In this document: positions 29,364 through 36,791 of the stretch, piece by piece | Numbering within the stretch: position 1 is the stretch's first letter | How the letters are laid out: each line of letters begins with the position of its first letter | Virus record (IMG/VR): IMGVR_UViG_3300010412_000050 | Location: 1 to 37,875 of that record | DNA: 37,875 nucleotides | Source: a virus | Reading direction: 5' to 3' (one strand) | Translations under genes and position numbers: made by a program | Notes under the pieces: model-generated | Told to the model about the DNA's origin: nothing | The model's database searches: none | The model's input: the letters and a program-made list of their open reading frames with translations, nothing else

Positions 29364-31775
29364 TCAGTCCTCCTTCTTCCACTCGGTCAGCTCACCCCAG
29401 TTCGGTCCGTACCCGATATCAACCTTCATAGGCACCGTGATTTTCACGCCAAACCTCGAGGTCCTGGGATTCTCGCACAGCTCTTGCACCGCTGTCAACA
29501 CCTCAGAAAACTCCTCCGGATGGACATCCAGGACGATGGAGTCGTGGACGGTGGCGATGATCCGGCTCTCCATCTTCCCTTCCCGGAGCCAGTTCCAGAG
29601 GTCGTTCATGCAAACCAGGGTCACCGCCGCCGCGTCGGACTGGATCGGGAAGTTCACGGCCTGCCGGAGCGCATGGGACCCCTCCTCGCTCTGGGGGTCG
29701 GTGACCTCCAGGTGCCGCACCCTCCCGAAGAGGGACCGGGTCCTGCCCGTGAGGAGGACCTCCTGCCGGATCTTCCGGGTCCAGGCACGGACCTTCGGGT
29801 ACTGGGACCAGTAGGCGGAGAGGAACTCCCTGGCCGTCTCGAACTCCATCCCCGTCTCCCCAGAGAGCCTCCCGGCGGACATCCCGTAGAGGATCCCGAA
29901 GTTGATGGTCTTCGCGAGATACCGCTGCTCCTTCTCGACGTTCTCCTCGGGGATGTTGAAGATGGCGGCAGCCGTGGTCCGGTGGATGTCCCCGTCCTTC
30001 TCGAAGACCTCCAGCATCCTCTCCTCGCCCGAGGTCATGGCCAGGATCCTCAGCTCCATCTGCGAGAAGTCAGCCTGCACGATCTTCCCGCTCGGGAACC
30101 TGGAGACGAAGACGCTCTTCACGTTCTTCGGCACCTGTTGGAGGTTCGGGTTCCGGCACGAGAGCCTCCCCGTGACCGTGCCCGTCAGGCTGTAGATCGG
30201 GTGGACCCTCCCGTCCCAGCCGATGTGCTTCTCCCGGAGCGGGGTCAGGAAGGCCGTCTCCAGCTTGTGGAGCGCACGGTACTTCAGGTAGTTCTCGATG
30301 AACTCCTTGCGGTCCCCGTCCACCTTCTTCTGCCGGAGGATCTTCTCGAGCGCCGGGGTGGAGACGGACGGCTGCTTCTGCGGAGTGAACGTGTGGCACT
30401 TGATCCCCATGTTCTCGTAGAGGACGGTAGCCACCTGCCGGGAACTGGCGAGGTTGATCTCCCCGGCCACCTCGTAGAGCTTCGCCGTGATGGCCCGCCG
30501 TTCCTTCTTGAACCTGCGGGAGAGGATGTCGACCTCGTCCCGGTCCACGAGAATCCCGTCAAGCTCCACGTCCACGAGGGTACGGAGCGTCTCCATCATC
30601 AGCTTGAACGGGCGCTCGAGCCTCTGCGCCTTGAGCTGGAACCGGAACAGCTTCCGCAACCGGTACGTGGCGTCGGCATCCATCGCGTTGTACTGGAGCA
30701 GTTCCTTCGTCACCTCGGTGAACGTCCCACGCTTCTGCTTCATCCCGTCGGCGTAGTGCCCCATGGGCGTGAAGCGTGCGGCAAGATGCTCGAGGCTCTT
30801 GTCGGGGTAGTCCTCGGAGATCAGGTGCCATGCCACGAGAGTGTCCCACACCGGGCCCCGGACCTTCCACCCCTCCTTCGCCAGCCACAGGAGGTCGAAC
30901 TTCAGGTTGTGTCCGATCTTCGTGTGGCGCTCGCTCGAGACTTTCGACACCGCACGGCGACAAGCACGCCCGTTCCCGAACTCGTAGGCTGCCGCCTGGA
31001 GCGGCGTGGACGACACGGCGACCGAAAGGATCCGGGCGTCCTTCGCCCACGGGTTGAACGTCGTGGTCTCCAGATCGATCGAGAACCGCTTCCCCACCTT
31101 GTAGGGCTCGGCCTCTTCCCCCTCCGCCTGGAGCACGTACTTCCTCGTCTTCGGGTCCTCGATCCCCTCATCCCCTTTCCCGAGGTAGATCTTCTGGATC
31201 CAGCGGAGGTCATCGATCACGACCTGCCTCAACGCAGGCATGCGGAAGATGGCCGCCGGATGGTAGGTGCCGGTGACCACCACTTCCCTCCGGCGCTTCC
31301 GCCACGAACTGCGCTTCTCCCGGAACTGCCGCTCGATGGTGAACGTCTTCCGGCGGAAGTCCTTGACCGACACTCCCGAGAACTGGTCCTTCATCGTGGA
31401 GAACGCCGTGTTGCCGAGGCACACGATCATCCTCGGGCGCACCTGCTCGATCGCGGGCCACATGTGCCTCGCGGAGCAGGCGAGGATCTCCCGCTTCGTC
31501 GGCTTGCGGTTCGAGGGTGGCCTGCACCACGTCGTGTTCGTGATCGCGTAGGGGAGTTCCCACTCGGCCTCCTCCAGGAGATCGAGCAGCAGCTTCCCGG
31601 CAGCCCCCACGAAGGGGCGTCCTCTCCGCTCCTCCTCCGCTCCCGGGGCCTCGCCCAGGAACAGGATGTTGCATCGCGCCGGACCCGTTCCCGTGCAGTA
31701 CCCGACCCTCCCCGCCGTCTGATGGAGGGCGCAGTCCCGACACTTCGGGTCACGTGCATCGTCCCAGTAGCCCAC
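29364..31775 (-). CDS. polA: Fused uracil-DNA glycosylase / 3'-5' exonuclease / DNA polymerase I (803 aa)
   Basis: Domain 1 (1-195) is a family-4-type uracil-DNA glycosylase: GEAPGAEEE and GRPFVGAAG (41-60), HPAA (172-175) and four Fe-S cysteines (C12, C15, C84, C100). Domain 2 (about 225-385) is a DnaQ-like exonuclease with intact D234/E236 (SIDLETT), D294 (GHNLKFD) and YNAMD (362-366). Domain 3 is family-A polymerase: motif A QADFSQMELRILA with D569, motif B R618-K622-F626-Y630, motif C VHDS with D745. The GTG start follows AAAGGGG and lies in a small hairpin. It replicates the phage genome; the glycosylase may handle uracil in template or product. Fused UDG-like domains are known in some phage polymerases, so the layout is rare but not unique. 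Confidence 0.92.
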   Translation of the reverse strand: MGYWDDARDPKCRDCALHQTAGRVGYCTGTGPARCNILFLGEAPGAEEERRGRPFVGAAGKLLLDLLEEAEWELPYAITNTTWCRPPSNRKPTKREILACSARHMWPAIEQVRPRMIVCLGNTAFSTMKDQFSGVSVKDFRRKTFTIERQFREKRSSWRKRRREVVVTGTYHPAAIFRMPALRQVVIDDLRWIQKIYLGKGDEGIEDPKTRKYVLQAEGEEAEPYKVGKRFSIDLETTTFNPWAKDARILSVAVSSTPLQAAAYEFGNGRACRRAVSKVSSERHTKIGHNLKFDLLWLAKEGWKVRGPVWDTLVAWHLISEDYPDKSLEHLAARFTPMGHYADGMKQKRGTFTEVTKELLQYNAMDADATYRLRKLFRFQLKAQRLERPFKLMMETLRTLVDVELDGILVDRDEVDILSRRFKKERRAITAKLYEVAGEINLASSRQVATVLYENMGIKCHTFTPQKQPSVSTPALEKILRQKKVDGDRKEFIENYLKYRALHKLETAFLTPLREKHIGWDGRVHPIYSLTGTVTGRLSCRNPNLQQVPKNVKSVFVSRFPSGKIVQADFSQMELRILAMTSGEERMLEVFEKDGDIHRTTAAAIFNIPEENVEKEQRYLAKTINFGILYGMSAGRLSGETGMEFETAREFLSAYWSQYPKVRAWTRKIRQEVLLTGRTRSLFGRVRHLEVTDPQSEEGSHALRQAVNFPIQSDAAAVTLVCMNDLWNWLREGKMESRIIATVHDSIVLDVHPEEFSEVLTAVQELCENPRTSRFGVKITVPMKVDIGYGPNWGELTEWKKED

Positions 31776-32639: not shown

Positions 32640-33607
32640 CAGAGTTCCTTCCAGTTCCAGTTACTGGGTTTCGTGGACTTCGACTTGCGTGGCTTCTTCT
32701 TGGTCGAGGATGCACGTCGCGACGAGGACCCACCCCGCGATCCCCCAGATGACGAGCGCGAGGATGAGCGTCGGGAGGAGCCACCACCCAGGAGCGAGTC
32801 GCGAGCCTTGCACCATACGTCGAGGAGTTCCGGTCCGGTCACTTGACACGGGTCTTTCCCTTCGGGCAGGCGAGCGATGGTGGCCTCGTGACCAGCCGCC
32901 TGCAACTGGTCGACGATCCGGAGGGCGTTTCGGGCCTCGTTCAGCCCCCCGTCTAGCATGACGATGAACCGGTCTCCTTCGTGCTCGAGTTTCTCGAGGA
33001 TGGAGTCCGTCAGGTTCTGCCCCCAGAGGGCGGCGGCCCGGCTGTGCGTGACGTACGCGGTGCGGAGAGCATCCGCTCCCCCCTCCACGAGGATGATCGG
33101 CTCGTGCTTGGACGAGAACTGCTGGAAGTACATGATGCTGATCGCGGCACGCCCGTCCACGATCCAGGGCTTCGGGGCCCCGTAGTGGAAAGTCTTCGGC
33201 CAGATCCAGGGGACACAGGCGTGCGCCGTGGCGAACGTCATGACCCCATCCTTGAAGACACGGAAGACGATGCGCCCGCTCAGTCCGTTGGTGCCGCTCC
33301 TGACGCCATGCTTCAGCGCGAACGACACCGGGATCTGGTGGTCCCGCAGGTACTGGGCAGCGGACCCCCGCAGGTCGTAGGACGTGGTGAGGTCCGGCAG
33401 CCTCGCGACCCGGCTCTCCTGGTCCATCACGAGGACGGGCATCGTCACGCCCGTGAGGTTCTGGAGGATCTTGGTCGGACCCCCCTGCTGGCACCGGAAG
33501 CAGAAGAACTTCCCCTTCTTCCAGTTGACGTAGAGCTTGCCCTTCGTCTCGCCGCAGAAGATGCAGCAGTACCGGTGCTCCCCTCCGCTGATCCCCTTCA
33601 GCTTCAT
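32639..33607 (-). CDS. dnaG: DnaG-type DNA primase (322 aa)
   Basis: The N-terminal zinc ribbon is C15-x2-C18 (CIFC) and C36-x2-C39 (CFRC), reading DNA for priming. The TOPRIM core shows ILVEGGADALRT with E175, MLDGG with D219, and the following LPEGKDP (247-253) typical of DnaG TOPRIMs. It would synthesise RNA primers with the DnaB-like helicase of the same operon. The C-terminal about 45 residues are an unusual Ser/Arg/Lys low-complexity tail, LLGGGSSRR and then KKKPRKSK, in place of the normal helicase-binding domain. The ATG overlaps the tiny upstream frame (ATGA). Confidence 0.88.
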   Translation of the reverse strand: MKLKGISGGEHRYCCIFCGETKGKLYVNWKKGKFFCFRCQQGGPTKILQNLTGVTMPVLVMDQESRVARLPDLTTSYDLRGSAAQYLRDHQIPVSFALKHGVRSGTNGLSGRIVFRVFKDGVMTFATAHACVPWIWPKTFHYGAPKPWIVDGRAAISIMYFQQFSSKHEPIILVEGGADALRTAYVTHSRAAALWGQNLTDSILEKLEHEGDRFIVMLDGGLNEARNALRIVDQLQAAGHEATIARLPEGKDPCQVTGPELLDVWCKARDSLLGGGSSRRSSSRSSSGGSRGGSSSRRASSTKKKPRKSKSTKPSNWNWKEL

Positions 33608-33654
33608 GGCTTCTCCTCCAGCATGGCGTCCAACGCCTTCTCGGCTTCGCTCAT
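33604..33654 (-). CDS. Possible 16-aa micro-ORF before the primase
   Basis: MSEAEKALDAMLEEKP has its ATG overlapping the upstream 42-aa stop (ATGA) and its stop overlapping the primase start (ATGA). High third-position G/C and perfect coupling on both sides make it look translated, perhaps as a relay or leader. It is in the same frame as the run-on coiled-coil gene. Evidence is weak because of its size. Confidence 0.3.
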   Translation of the reverse strand: MSEAEKALDAMLEEKP

Positions 33655-34029
33655 GGCGTCACCTTGTGGTCGCGGACGAGGGTGGCGAAATAGTAGCTCC
33701 ACCGTCTCGCCTCGTAGTGGAGGTCGAGTTCCTCCAGCATCTTCGCCGCGCTCTCCAGGGCTTCGCGGTGGGTCGGCATGGCAGCGTTGGAGTTCTTGGT
33801 AGCATTCATCCAGTTCCCGGATCTTGCGGTTGGCGGCGGGGACGACATCGAGAATGTTGTGCCTACACCCGCCATCCCCGAGCATCCGGGTGCAGTCGCT
33901 ACCACAGACCGGGCAGGTGTAGTCGTCGCTGCCTTGCGTACGGGGGCTTGTGGCCTCCTTGTTCAAGGCAGCCTCCAGTTCCGCCACCCTGCGCTCCAGG
34001 GCAATGATGCGGTTGAGGGTATCATTCAT
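33604..34029 (-). CDS. Coiled-coil zinc-finger protein with run-on tail (141 aa)
   Basis: The ATG at 34029 has the site AAAGGAG (an ATG 6 bp upstream is too close to it). Residues 1-25 form a coiled coil (NRIIALERRVAELEAAL), and C39, C42, C46 and C55 (CPVCGSDC ... GGC) suggest a zinc site. Native-looking sequence ends near residue 83 (YQELQRC). The frame then continues with no stop through the 42-aa gene at 33651-33779, as in two other places in this genome, and finishes in the micro-ORF. Function unknown. Confidence 0.45.
   Translation of the reverse strand: MNDTLNRIIALERRVAELEAALNKEATSPRTQGSDDYTCPVCGSDCTRMLGDGGCRHNILDVVPAANRKIRELDECYQELQRCHADPPRSPGERGEDAGGTRPPLRGETVELLFRHPRPRPQGDAMSEAEKALDAMLEEKP
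33651..33779 (-). CDS. Small helical protein (42 aa), nested in the run-on frame
   Basis: MPTHREALESAAKMLEELDL onward, ending RDHKVTP. The third codon positions are nearly all G or C in this frame, unlike the overlapping run-on frame, so this is the likely coding frame over 33651-33779. Predicted helix, charged. The ATG lies within the end of the upstream zinc protein, and its stop overlaps the micro-ORF start (ATGA). No function assigned. Confidence 0.5.
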   Translation of the reverse strand: MPTHREALESAAKMLEELDLHYEARRWSYYFATLVRDHKVTP

Positions 34030-34049
34030 TGTCATCTCCTTTCAGGGTT

Positions 34050-34120: not shown

Positions 34121-34600
34121 CTAGGGGATCGGGCGCATCGTCATGTCGATGAAGCGGAGCGCGAGTTCCTTGCACTCCTTCTTCGCCTTCGACATCTCCT
34201 TCTTGTCCCCCTCGATCCGGGCCGCAGCGTACTGCGCGTAGCACACCGCGATCTCGGTCCAGATCTGGTTGGCGGTCACGCGGGCCGTCGCCGGAGCAGC
34301 CTCGACGGTCTTGCGAGGACGACCAGGACCCCTCTTCGGAGGAGCGGGCTCGTCTTCCTCCTCCTCCTCCTCCTCGTCCTCGTCCTCCTCCTCGTCGTCG
34401 TCTTCGTCTTCGTCCTCGTCGTCCTCGTCTTCGTCCTCGTCCTCGTCCTCGTCCTCGTCGTCCTCGTCCTCGTCGTCCTCGTCGATGTCTTCCTCTTCCT
34501 CGTCGTCCTCGTCCTCGTCGTCCACGACGGGGGCCGCCTTCTTGGCCTTCTCGTCAGCGGCCTTGGCCTTGCTCGCCTTCTTCCTGCTCTTGAGACTCAC
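34121..34600 (-). CDS. Hyper-acidic AT-hook protein (159 aa)
   Basis: The GTG at 34600 overlaps the upstream stop (GTGA) with AGGAGGAGCT. Residues 1-23 are basic (KSRKKASKAKAA), 27-84 are an almost pure run of Asp/Glu, 89-97 (KRGPGRPRK) is an AT-hook that binds the minor groove of A/T-rich DNA, and 105-150 form a helical domain (QIWTEIAVCYAQYAAARI). The acidic run is encoded by a GAC/GAG microsatellite. A DNA-mimic or histone-like decoy that also binds A/T-rich DNA, for example the control regions at the two ends, is possible. No known family. Confidence 0.6.
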   Translation of the reverse strand: MSLKSRKKASKAKAADEKAKKAAPVVDDEDEDDEEEEDIDEDDEDEDDEDEDEDEDEDEDDEDEDEDDDEEEDEDEEEEEEEDEPAPPKRGPGRPRKTVEAAPATARVTANQIWTEIAVCYAQYAAARIEGDKKEMSKAKKECKELALRFIDMTMRPIP

Positions 34601-34776
34601 AGCTCCTCCTTGTCGAGAACCTCCAGGACCGTTCGGAACCGGGGGTAGGGGAGGTTCCGTCCCATCACCCAGTTCTTCACCGTGCGGACATCGACGCCCA
34701 GCCGGTACGCCAACCGGCTCATCGGCCACCGCCGATCATCGAGGATCCGACGGACCATCGTGCGGTACTTGTGCAT
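34597..34776 (-). CDS. Small HTH DNA-binding protein, Cro-like (59 aa)
   Basis: Residues 17-42 (RWPMSRLAYRLGVDVRTVKNWVMGR) give a classical helix-turn-helix: an LAYRLGV turn and a recognition helix RTVKNWV. With 59 residues it is the size of phage Cro-type repressors. A frame reaching farther upstream exists, but the coding bias starts at this ATG. It lies next to a second HTH regulator and downstream of a region of palindromes that could be the operator. Confidence 0.6.
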   Translation of the reverse strand: MHKYRTMVRRILDDRRWPMSRLAYRLGVDVRTVKNWVMGRNLPYPRFRTVLEVLDKEEL

Positions 34777-34783
34777 CAGCTCC

Positions 34784-35038
34784 CTACGAGACGAGCCGGG
34801 CGACCTTCGTGCGGTACGTGCGGGCCATCTTCTCGAGAACCGCGAGCGTCGGGGCAACCGTGTTCTCCTTGGACTCGAGCTGGTAGAGGAAGGAGAGCGT
34901 CACCCCCATCTGCGAGGACGCCTCCTGCACCGAGAGCTGGGAGGCTTCACGGGCATCGACGATGTTCGCCTTGACCTTCTTCCGGAGCTTCGGGCTGATG
35001 AGGTACTTCACTCCGGCCTTCGTCTTCTTCGCTTTCAC
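34784..35038 (-). CDS. XRE-family transcriptional regulator, antitoxin candidate (84 aa)
   Basis: The GTG at 35038 overlaps the upstream stop (GTGA) with AGGAGGGGGAA upstream. Residues 35-75 (LSVQEASSQMGVTLSFLYQLE and then LAVLEKMARTY) match the XRE helix-turn-helix, including the conserved A-x-x-x-G-V/S turn and the LxxLExxENxP-like helix. A basic N-terminal extension precedes it. It lies directly behind a HicA-like gene with coupled translation, like a toxin-antitoxin pair, but could simply be the phage repressor. Confidence 0.65.
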   Translation of the reverse strand: MKAKKTKAGVKYLISPKLRKKVKANIVDAREASQLSVQEASSQMGVTLSFLYQLESKENTVAPTLAVLEKMARTYRTKVARLVS

Positions 35039-35262
35039 TTCCCCCTCCTGAACGGGCTCGAAGGGCAGCGGTTGATCGAGCGTACCGCGTTCCGCGCAGC
35101 CCGTAGATTGCTGCTCTTGGACGCACTCCCGGAGTTCGGGAGGGTCACGACGTGCTTCCCGCACGGGCAGTAGTAGAGCAGGTGGCTGCCCTTCGCGGGA
35201 CGTTTCTCCCACCCTTCCGCGTCAAGGATCCTCGCGACATCCACGAAGCTGGTGGGCTTCAT
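35035..35262 (-). CDS. HicA-like small protein (75 aa)
   Basis: The ATG overlaps the upstream stop (ATGA). Residues 5-60 follow the HicA/dsRBD-like alpha-beta-beta-beta-alpha plan: helix VARILDAEGWEK, then KGSHLLYYC with the G-S/D-H motif (25-27; the histidine is the presumed catalytic residue), strand HVVTLPN and helix LRAARNAV. HicA proteins are mRNA-cleaving toxins whose partner is HicB or an XRE protein. Here the coupled downstream gene is XRE-type. C32 and C34 are unusual for the family. The toxin role is inferred from motif and neighbourhood. Confidence 0.55.
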   Translation of the reverse strand: MKPTSFVDVARILDAEGWEKRPAKGSHLLYYCPCGKHVVTLPNSGSASKSSNLRAARNAVRSINRCPSSPFRRGK

Positions 35263-35855
35263 CCCATCACCCCCCGGTCGTCATCCTCGGGTTTCACCTT
35301 GAGCCTGTCAAGCAGTTTTCTGAGACGGCCCGAATACTCCCCGACCTCGACCATCCCGGGGTGGAAGTCGATCCCCGCCCAGTACGCGACCGCTTCCCGG
35401 GCCTGCTCGACCTCCCCGGCCCACGCCCACCGCAGGAACCTCCAGTCCCGGATCATCATGAGAACCGGCGGCTGCAGTCCCCGGGCCCGGAAGGAATCCA
35501 TCTTCAGGAGGTAGCGCTTCCCGACCGGCTTGATCGCGATCGGGATCACGACCGTCTGCTCCCCGTGGAACTCCATCGGCCAGGACAGGTCCGGGAACCC
35601 CAGCCTCACCGAGGTCTCTGCCTCGTCCGGGAACGCCACCCCGTAGACCGTGCTCCCCTCCCACACCTCGGGCACCTGACCGTAGAGCTGGGTCAGTGGA
35701 GTCACCTCGCTGTAGAGCTTCCACTCGAGCTGGCCGTACATGGAGCCGTCCCACCGATCCCGATCGTCTGCCGGTGAAAGCAGAGGTACAACAAGCCGGT
35801 CCCCCTTCTTGAGCGTTCCCTTCAAGAAGGGAATTGCGTACTCGATCTTCTTCAT
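35259..35855 (-). CDS. Hypothetical protein, first gene of the leftward operon (198 aa)
   Basis: The ATG at 35855 follows AAGGAGACCAATTT, a strong site, just downstream of the palindromic control region. The protein is beta-rich and tryptophan-containing (WDGSMYGQLEWKLY, KPVGKRYLLKMDSF, MMIRDWRFLRWAWAG) and ends in a charged helical tail (SGRLRKLLDRLKVKPEDDDR). No motif or family is recognised. As the first early gene it may be among the earliest expressed, so a host-takeover role is possible, without direct support. Confidence 0.6.
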   Translation of the reverse strand: MKKIEYAIPFLKGTLKKGDRLVVPLLSPADDRDRWDGSMYGQLEWKLYSEVTPLTQLYGQVPEVWEGSTVYGVAFPDEAETSVRLGFPDLSWPMEFHGEQTVVIPIAIKPVGKRYLLKMDSFRARGLQPPVLMMIRDWRFLRWAWAGEVEQAREAVAYWAGIDFHPGMVEVGEYSGRLRKLLDRLKVKPEDDDRGVMG

Positions 35856-35888: not shown

Positions 35889-35908
35889 GTACCTATGTCT
35901 ATAGGTAC
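35889..35908. promoter_or_regulatory. Perfect 20-bp palindrome, operator candidate
   Basis: The arms GTACCTAT (35889-35896) and ATAGGTAC (35901-35908) are perfect inverted copies around GTCT. It lies 34 bp upstream of the first gene of the leftward operon, the typical place for a repressor operator. The XRE or Cro-like proteins of the same operon are candidate ligands. TATATGT and TACGTA motifs surround it. Confidence 0.65.
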
Positions 35909-35956
35909 TACGTAATACGTATCCTTTACGTACTACGTCTACTCCACCCTCTCTGA

Positions 35957-36000
35957 CGGAGGTAGTGCCGAGGAGCGAAGCGACGAAGGTACTACCTCCG
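35957..36000. repeat. Inverted repeat, 13-bp arms with one mismatch
   Basis: CGGAGGTAGTGCC (35957-35969) and GGTACTACCTCCG (35988-36000) pair except at one position, around an 18-nt loop. It could be a second operator or an RNA stem in the 5' leader. The arms share GGTACTAC with the 35904-35914 motif. Confidence 0.6.
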
Positions 36001-36007
36001 GTGTAGT

Positions 36008-36040
36008 CAATATCCACAAAGAGCGTACTTGAGGATATTG
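36008..36040. repeat. Inverted repeat, 8-bp arms, 17-bp spacer
   Basis: CAATATCC (36008-36015) and GGATATTG (36033-36040) are perfect inverted copies. The spacing of 17 bp between arms, and the TTGACT on the minus strand overlapping the left arm, suggest a binding site that overlaps a promoter. Confidence 0.5.
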
Positions 36041-36052
36041 TCTTATCCTTCT

Positions 36053-36114
36053 AACGGGAGGATCCCCCTACGTCGTCGTCGCTGCGCTCCTCCTCCTCCG
36101 GGGGCCCTCCCGTT
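36053..36114. repeat. Long G/C inverted repeat around a codon-like loop
   Basis: AACGGGAGG (36053-36061) pairs with CCTCCCGTT (36106-36114), and after two mismatches CCCCC (36064-36068) pairs with GGGGG (36100-36104). This gives a long imperfect hairpin with a G/C-rich loop. It may be a terminator, an RNA element or a protein-binding cruciform. Confidence 0.5.
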
Positions 36115-36210
36115 CATGAGGTCTAGGTGGTTATGTCTTCTCGGTAGACCACAGGTACTATGAGCTGCACTCCAGCTCACTCGGAATCCTCCAGGATCGT
36201 CGATCTCGGA

Positions 36211-36239
36211 GGGGGGTGCTATGGTGGTAGCCACCCCCC
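36211..36239. terminator. Terminator-like hairpin after the right-end operon
   Basis: The arms GGGGGGTG-CTA (36211-36221) and TAG-C-CACCCCCC (36228-36239) form a stem with one bulged base and a 6-nt loop. It lies about 50 bp downstream of the last right-end gene (leftward), where a transcript end is expected. No T-run follows on either strand, so it may be a Rho-assisted end or a stabiliser and not a classic intrinsic terminator. Confidence 0.4.
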
Positions 36240-36287
36240 ATAGATCTCTTCACCACGGGCCTCGCAGGGGCCTTCCCGGCGAAGCTG

Positions 36288-36791
36288 TCAGTCCATCCGG
36301 GACTGTGCGTAGAACTTCATCCCGGGAAGCTCTGCCTCCAGGGTCTCGGCCATGGCACGGGCGCAGGCCTCTTTCCGCTCCAGGGACTGGCCGAAGGAGT
36401 GGATCCAGTACTGCACACCGCCGTTCCATTTATGAGACCACCCGGCGTTCTTGCGGGCCCACTGCGAGAAGGAGTCGTTCCCTGGACGGTGCATCACCCA
36501 GGCGAATCCGCAGCAGCCGTCCTTCACGACATCCACGATGGAGCCCGCAGGCTCCGGGAAGCCACAGCCCACCACCGTCATCGGGTGGGGCACGCAGGCC
36601 TTCCCCGCGAGGTAGCCCGCCTCCTTGGCCTTGGTCCAGGCGGCCTCGAACGAGGCGTAGCGGTCCATCCGCTCCTGCTTGTCGGCCTGGATCTGCTCCT
36701 TCCAGCGGGCCCTTGCCTCCCGCTTGTGGAACGTGCAGTACTTGCTCTTGCCGGAACGGGGATCCTCACAGGTCTCGATCACGCACTTCAT
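36288..36791 (-). CDS. Conserved phage hypothetical protein with N-terminal zinc motif (167 aa)
   Basis: The ATG at 36791 has GGAGGACTG upstream. The N-terminus CVIETCEDPRSGKSKYCTFH contains three cysteines and a histidine in a zinc-finger-like layout. The C-terminal domain carries GFAWVMHRPGND, NGGVQYWIHSFGQSLERKEA and an ending FYAQSRMD. I recall this GFAWV, GQSxxRKEA, SRMD pattern from uncharacterised proteins in many phages. Function unknown; it is the last of the five right-end genes. Confidence 0.6.
   Translation of the reverse strand: MKCVIETCEDPRSGKSKYCTFHKREARARWKEQIQADKQERMDRYASFEAAWTKAKEAGYLAGKACVPHPMTVVGCGFPEPAGSIVDVVKDGCCGFAWVMHRPGNDSFSQWARKNAGWSHKWNGGVQYWIHSFGQSLERKEACARAMAETLEAELPGMKFYAQSRMD

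What the first reader, a model, noticed from the sequence alone, without database searches (positions are those of the whole stretch)
34597..35262. HicA-like / XRE / small HTH cassette: possible phage toxin-antitoxin or switch
Three coupled genes encode a HicA-like protein with a G-S-H motif, an XRE regulator and a Cro-sized HTH protein, followed by the acidic AT-hook protein. A HicA-type toxin paired with XRE (instead of HicB) plus a second HTH would be a non-standard toxin-antitoxin or superinfection-exclusion module under a palindromic operator. Alternatively the HTH pair is a lytic/lysogenic switch without integrase.
Basis: partly seen in the sequence, partly recalled or inferred. Interest (0 to 1): 0.6.

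Follow-up and report, generated by a model that had tools for sequence, protein, structure and literature searches.

The report
HicB-less HicA in phage early operon
An apparently virulent short-tailed phage carries, inside its replication operon, a toxin-type RNA-cutting protein (HicA) next to a small DNA-binding regulator instead of its usual antitoxin; the pairing is unusual, but it is seen only once and its function is untested.

Summary
Window 34597-35262 (- strand) encodes three tightly packed small genes: a HicA-fold protein with an intact G-x-H active-site motif, an XRE regulator and a 59-aa HTH protein. They are followed by an acidic protein with an AT-hook. HicA identity is supported by Pfam, PHROG, PDB sequence and structure matches. 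The record has no recognisable HicB and no tyrosine or large serine integrase.

In a survey of actinobacterial HicA loci, 117 of 126 had a HicB next door, and none of the eight inspected exceptions had a stand-alone XRE partner. Two published surveys do not list HicA with a stand-alone XRE. So 'HicA next to XRE instead of HicB' is genuinely atypical.

The toxin-antitoxin reading is not established. Overlapping genes are general in this operon, no relative with the same pair was found, and both proteins are strongly basic. I favour an orphan HicA RNase used early in infection, with XRE and HTH regulating the early operon, whose promoter region carries the 8-4-8 palindrome at 35889-35908. A true HicA-XRE toxin-antitoxin pair is the main rival. 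A classical lysogeny switch is unlikely. Novelty: new variant of a known kind, from one instance.

The parts
35035..35262 (-). HicA-like protein, 75 aa, with G25-S-H27 motif and CPCGKH segment
   Evidence: phrog_353 4.8e-8, PF07927 4e-5 below cut-off, 1whz 6.6e-4, fold matches to HicA, invariant G25/H27
34784..35038 (-). XRE-family HTH protein, 84 aa, basic N-terminal extension, GTG start overlapping the hicA stop
   Evidence: HTH_3 26 bits, cut-off 23; net charge +11
34597..34776 (-). small Cro-sized HTH protein, 59 aa
   Evidence: phrog_4779 transcriptional regulator 5e-4; HTH_3 E 0.01; weak
34121..34600 (-). acidic D/E-rich protein with an AT-hook-like GRPRK motif, 159 aa, net charge -43
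   Evidence: read from sequence; charge
35259..35855 (-). 198-aa protein of unknown family, first gene of the operon, overlaps the hicA start by 4 nt
   Evidence: no Pfam, PHROG, PADLOC or NCBIfam match; model unusable
35889..35908 (.). perfect 8-4-8 palindrome GTACCTATgtctATAGGTAC, candidate operator 33 bp upstream of the operon's first ATG
   Evidence: 0.8% of local shuffles have a palindrome as long

Best explanation
The cassette is part of the early (replication) operon of a virulent podovirus-like phage. It encodes an orphan HicA-type mRNA interferase and two small HTH regulators. Early in infection the operon would be read leftwards from the promoter region near 35.88 kb. HicA would act for a short time as an RNase on host or early phage mRNA, comparable in role to T4 RegB (comparison from general knowledge). 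XRE and/or the small HTH protein would bind the palindrome at 35889-35908 and turn the operon, and with it HicA, down again. Shown: the genes, their families, gene order, intact active-site residues, no recognisable HicB, no tyrosine or large serine integrase. Inferred: RNase activity, toxicity, timing, operator binding, regulation.
For: HicA homology and intact G25/H27. No HicB profile match in the record. The genes lie between a promoter-like AT-rich region and primase, polymerase, SSB and helicase genes on the same strand. No integrase. The only two HTH_3-type matches of the record are in this cassette, and a non-coding palindrome precedes the operon. In the surveyed HicA loci HicB is nearly always adjacent, so its absence here is real and not a search failure.
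Against: No experiment. An RNase without a cognate antitoxin could be self-damaging. A toxin gene followed at once by an XRE gene is also the classical order of HigBA-type pairs. HicA scores below Pfam's curated cut-off and its C-terminal half diverges, so activity is not assured. The contig may lack a few kb.
Confidence: 0.45

Rival explanations
1. A true hybrid type II toxin-antitoxin pair: HicA toxin first, XRE antitoxin second (HigBA-like order). XRE binds HicA and autorepresses the operon at the palindrome; the pair serves competition with other phages or superinfection exclusion.
For: Toxin-then-XRE order, 4-nt overlap and strong ribosome-binding site of xre; no HicB; palindrome upstream. 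Xre is a major antitoxin hub in known toxin-antitoxin networks (PMC2701414).
Against: Overlaps are general in this operon. HicA-HicB is reported as a strict pair and none of the inspected exceptions in the survey had an XRE partner. Known HicB neutralises through an RNase-H-like domain over the active site (PMC11594946), which XRE lacks. HicA +10 and XRE +11 are both basic. A 198-aa gene separates hicA from the putative operator.
Confidence: 0.27
2. The HicA-like protein is not a toxin: a degenerate or repurposed HicA fold that binds RNA or titrates a host HicB antitoxin (decoy), with XRE and HTH as unrelated regulators.
For: Score below the Pfam cut-off, divergent C-terminal half, low-margin codon usage.
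Against: Gly25 and His27 are both retained.
Confidence: 0.18
3. The XRE/HTH pair is a lytic-lysogenic switch without integrase (for example a plasmid-like prophage).
For: Two HTH proteins and a palindromic site.
Against: No tyrosine or large serine integrase. Both genes have the same direction, deep in the replication operon, with no divergent repressor promoter. No partition gene was seen among the main ORFs scanned.
Confidence: 0.06

Closest known systems
HicAB type II toxin-antitoxin system (phage versions: Adephagia gp91/gp90, Phrann 34/33, Babsiella 31/30, Ayotoya 35/34)
   Same: HicA protein with conserved Gly and His, phage-borne, small gene followed closely by a gene for a DNA-binding protein in Phrann- and Babsiella-type loci
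   Different: No HicB; the neighbour is a stand-alone XRE without an RNase-H-like domain; the phage has no detectable integrase, whereas those phages are temperate or carry an integrase next to the locus
HigBA-type pairs (RelE-family toxin with XRE antitoxin)
   Same: Gene order toxin then XRE, overlapping genes
   Different: The toxin here is HicA-fold, not RelE-fold; antitoxin activity untested
T4 RegB (early phage endoribonuclease)
   Same: Proposed role only: a phage RNase made early without an antitoxin
   Different: No homology tested or claimed; comparison of role from general knowledge

Membership tests
HicA toxin family (PF07927) | Sequence match above the curated cut-off | tested here: not met
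   24.1 bits against 27; but phrog_353 4.8e-8 and 1whz 6.6e-4
HicA toxin family (PF07927) | dsRBD-like fold, helix-strand-strand-strand-helix | tested here: met
   model order of elements; five best PDB matches are HicA-family chains, scores modest
HicA toxin family (PF07927) | Catalytic His with the Gly two residues before it | tested here: met
   G25 and H27 invariant; functional residues per PMC11594946
HicA toxin family (PF07927) | RNA cleavage and toxicity | not testable with these tools
   needs expression and RNase assays
HicAB toxin-antitoxin system | HicB antitoxin (partial RNase H fold) encoded next to hicA | tested here: not met
   PF15919 and PF05534 give no match in the record at E up to 10; the 198-aa neighbour could not be modelled
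HicA-XRE hybrid toxin-antitoxin pair | The same gene pair recurs in other genomes | tested here: not met
   no relative of hicA or xre found; none of the inspected HicB-less survey loci has an XRE neighbour; the search reached close relatives only
HicA-XRE hybrid toxin-antitoxin pair | XRE binds and neutralises HicA | not testable with these tools
   needs kill/rescue and binding assays
XRE family regulator (HTH_3) | HTH_3 domain above cut-off | tested here: met
   26 bits against 23
Temperate-phage immunity switch | Integrase and divergent repressor/Cro genes | tested here: not met
   no PF00589 or PF07508 match; both HTH genes on one strand

The most novel reading that the evidence does not exclude
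A phage-borne HicA whose antitoxin is a stand-alone XRE protein with no HicB domain: a new toxin-antitoxin combination that breaks the reported strict HicA-HicB exclusivity, built into the replication operon of a virulent phage.
Probability: 0.22. Interest if true: 0.6.

Novelty: new variant of a known kind. Interest (0 to 1): 0.36.

Why it matters
HicA-HicB has been described as an exclusive pairing. A HicA that lives without HicB in an apparently virulent phage would either reveal a new antitoxin mechanism or show that phages use HicA as an offensive or regulatory RNase. Either can be tested with a simple kill/rescue assay.

Tried and rejected
Single-protein scans of viral contigs with HicA, XRE, HTH, primase and polymerase found no relatives. 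A Phrann HicA query gave four near relatives and an Acinetobacter HicA query gave 80 loci at 98% identity to it; these were not analysed further.

A motif scan for G-x-H....C-x-C-G-x-H-x-V in viral contigs gave 29 stretches, of which only two are real HicA (L016, L031); the rest look like chance. A similar scan of genomes gave five, all actinobacterial with a HicB-type gene downstream.

The 198-aa protein as a disguised HicB: no family match and an unusable model, so undecided.

AGGTACTAC repeats as operators: 20 sites with up to one mismatch against 1.9 expected, but most lie inside genes on the + strand, so codon usage is a likely cause; not used as evidence.

Rfam in the promoter region: nothing credible. 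No sigma-70 consensus promoter found.

The Era103 and MT839638 tblastn matches are on the opposite strand of, or in another frame from, the genes there; MT835480 has an ordinary HicA with a HicB-like gene downstream.

Full report
What is there. On the - strand the right third of the window is a run of tightly packed genes: a 198-aa protein (35855-35259), HicA-like (35262-35035), XRE (35038-34784), small HTH (34776-34597), acidic AT-hook protein (34600-34121), then a small-gene region, primase (33607-32639), a 238-aa protein, DNA polymerase A with an N-terminal UDG domain, a gp32-like single-strand-binding protein, a PD-(D/E)XK-like protein (weak match) and a DnaB-like helicase. The + strand carries terminase, portal and a head protein whose relatives lie in Mx8- and BUCT555-type phages. 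The record is a 'linear' IMG/VR virus contig and may be slightly incomplete.

HicA. The 75-aa protein matches phrog_353 'toxin' (4.8e-8), PF07927 (4e-5, below the curated cut-off) and the Thermus HicA structure 1whz (6.6e-4). An AlphaFold model from eight sequences has mean pLDDT 72 and the order helix-strand-strand-strand-helix. Its five best PDB matches are 1whz, HicA from Burkholderia (6g26 E and F, 4c26) and the HicA3/HicB3 complex (4p78), with modest TM-scores of 0.43-0.57. Gly25 and His27 are invariant in both alignments. They have the spacing and position of Gly22/His24 of BpsHicA and Gly26/His28 of YpHicA3, which are needed for toxicity or activity (PMC11594946). The CPCGKH segment is shared with actinobacterial HicA proteins. 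The C-terminal half diverges.

Partner. No HicB profile matches anywhere in the record. The next gene codes for a stand-alone XRE protein (HTH_3 26 bits, cut-off 23) with a basic N-terminal extension. As a control I took 130 regions around HicA matches in 199 genomes of the phylum of an Amycolatopsis genome (regions). Of 126 HicA frames, 117 had a HicB-type gene within 600 bp on the same strand. Eight of the nine exceptions were inspected; the ninth, L132, looked like a wrong frame and was not. Two of the eight had a HicB-like gene that my model missed, one ended at a contig edge, and none had an XRE-type neighbour. The sample leans to strong HicA matches. Published surveys agree: HicA-HicB is reported to occur strictly as a unique pair (PMC2701414), and the 14 HicA contexts of PMC10865869 do not include a stand-alone XRE.

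Why the toxin-antitoxin reading is not proven. Four-base start/stop overlaps run through much of this operon, so the hicA/xre overlap is not special. Neither gene has a detectable relative in viral contigs by the searches possible here, and five phages related by capsid or polymerase carry no HicA, so co-conservation cannot be tested. HicA (+10) and XRE (+11) are both basic; this is a weak argument against direct binding, because a HicB with its DNA-binding domain (L016) is also +10. HicB blocks the HicA active site with a domain that XRE does not have.

Regulation. The palindrome GTACCTATgtctATAGGTAC at 35889-35908 lies 33 bp upstream of the first ATG of the operon, in a stretch of 40% GC; a palindrome as long appears in 0.8% of local shuffles. 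Two further TACGTA-type palindromic stretches follow it. The two HTH genes are the only HTH_3-type matches in the record. XRE and/or HTH as operon regulators is the plainest reading, and it is inferred. No sigma-70 consensus promoter was found.

Lysogeny. No tyrosine or large serine recombinase is present, and both HTH genes run with the replication genes. A classical switch is unlikely.

Conclusion. The mechanism it put first, XRE as antitoxin, remains possible (0.27), but an orphan early HicA RNase with operon regulators is somewhat more likely (0.45). A kill/rescue assay would settle it.

Noticed in passing
window 33604-34035 (-): The 143-aa frame loses its coding signal half-way (score -0.29 per codon), while a second frame (33651-33905) takes over with 'MPTHREALESAAKMLEELDLHYEARRW...'. 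Either overlapping small genes, a frameshift or a sequence error.
   Followed up: partly
window 29364-31775 (-): DNA polymerase A carries an N-terminal uracil-DNA-glycosylase domain (PF03167, 1.1e-26) in front of the exonuclease and polymerase domains; SPO1-type polymerases are among its matches. It may point to unusual DNA bases.
   Followed up: no
window 34121-34600 (-): Acidic protein with a run of about 60 D/E residues, a GRPRK AT-hook-like motif and a short C-terminal domain; net charge -43. Possible DNA mimic or histone-like protein.
   Followed up: no
window 35950-36290: About 340 bp upstream of the operon with several inverted repeats, for example 35970-35986 / 36076-36092 (17 nt, 94%) and 35957-35969 / 35988-36000 (13 nt, 92%). 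No credible Rfam match.
   Followed up: partly
window, whole: AGGTACTAC with up to one mismatch occurs 20 times against 1.9 expected, mostly on the + strand inside genes.
   Followed up: no
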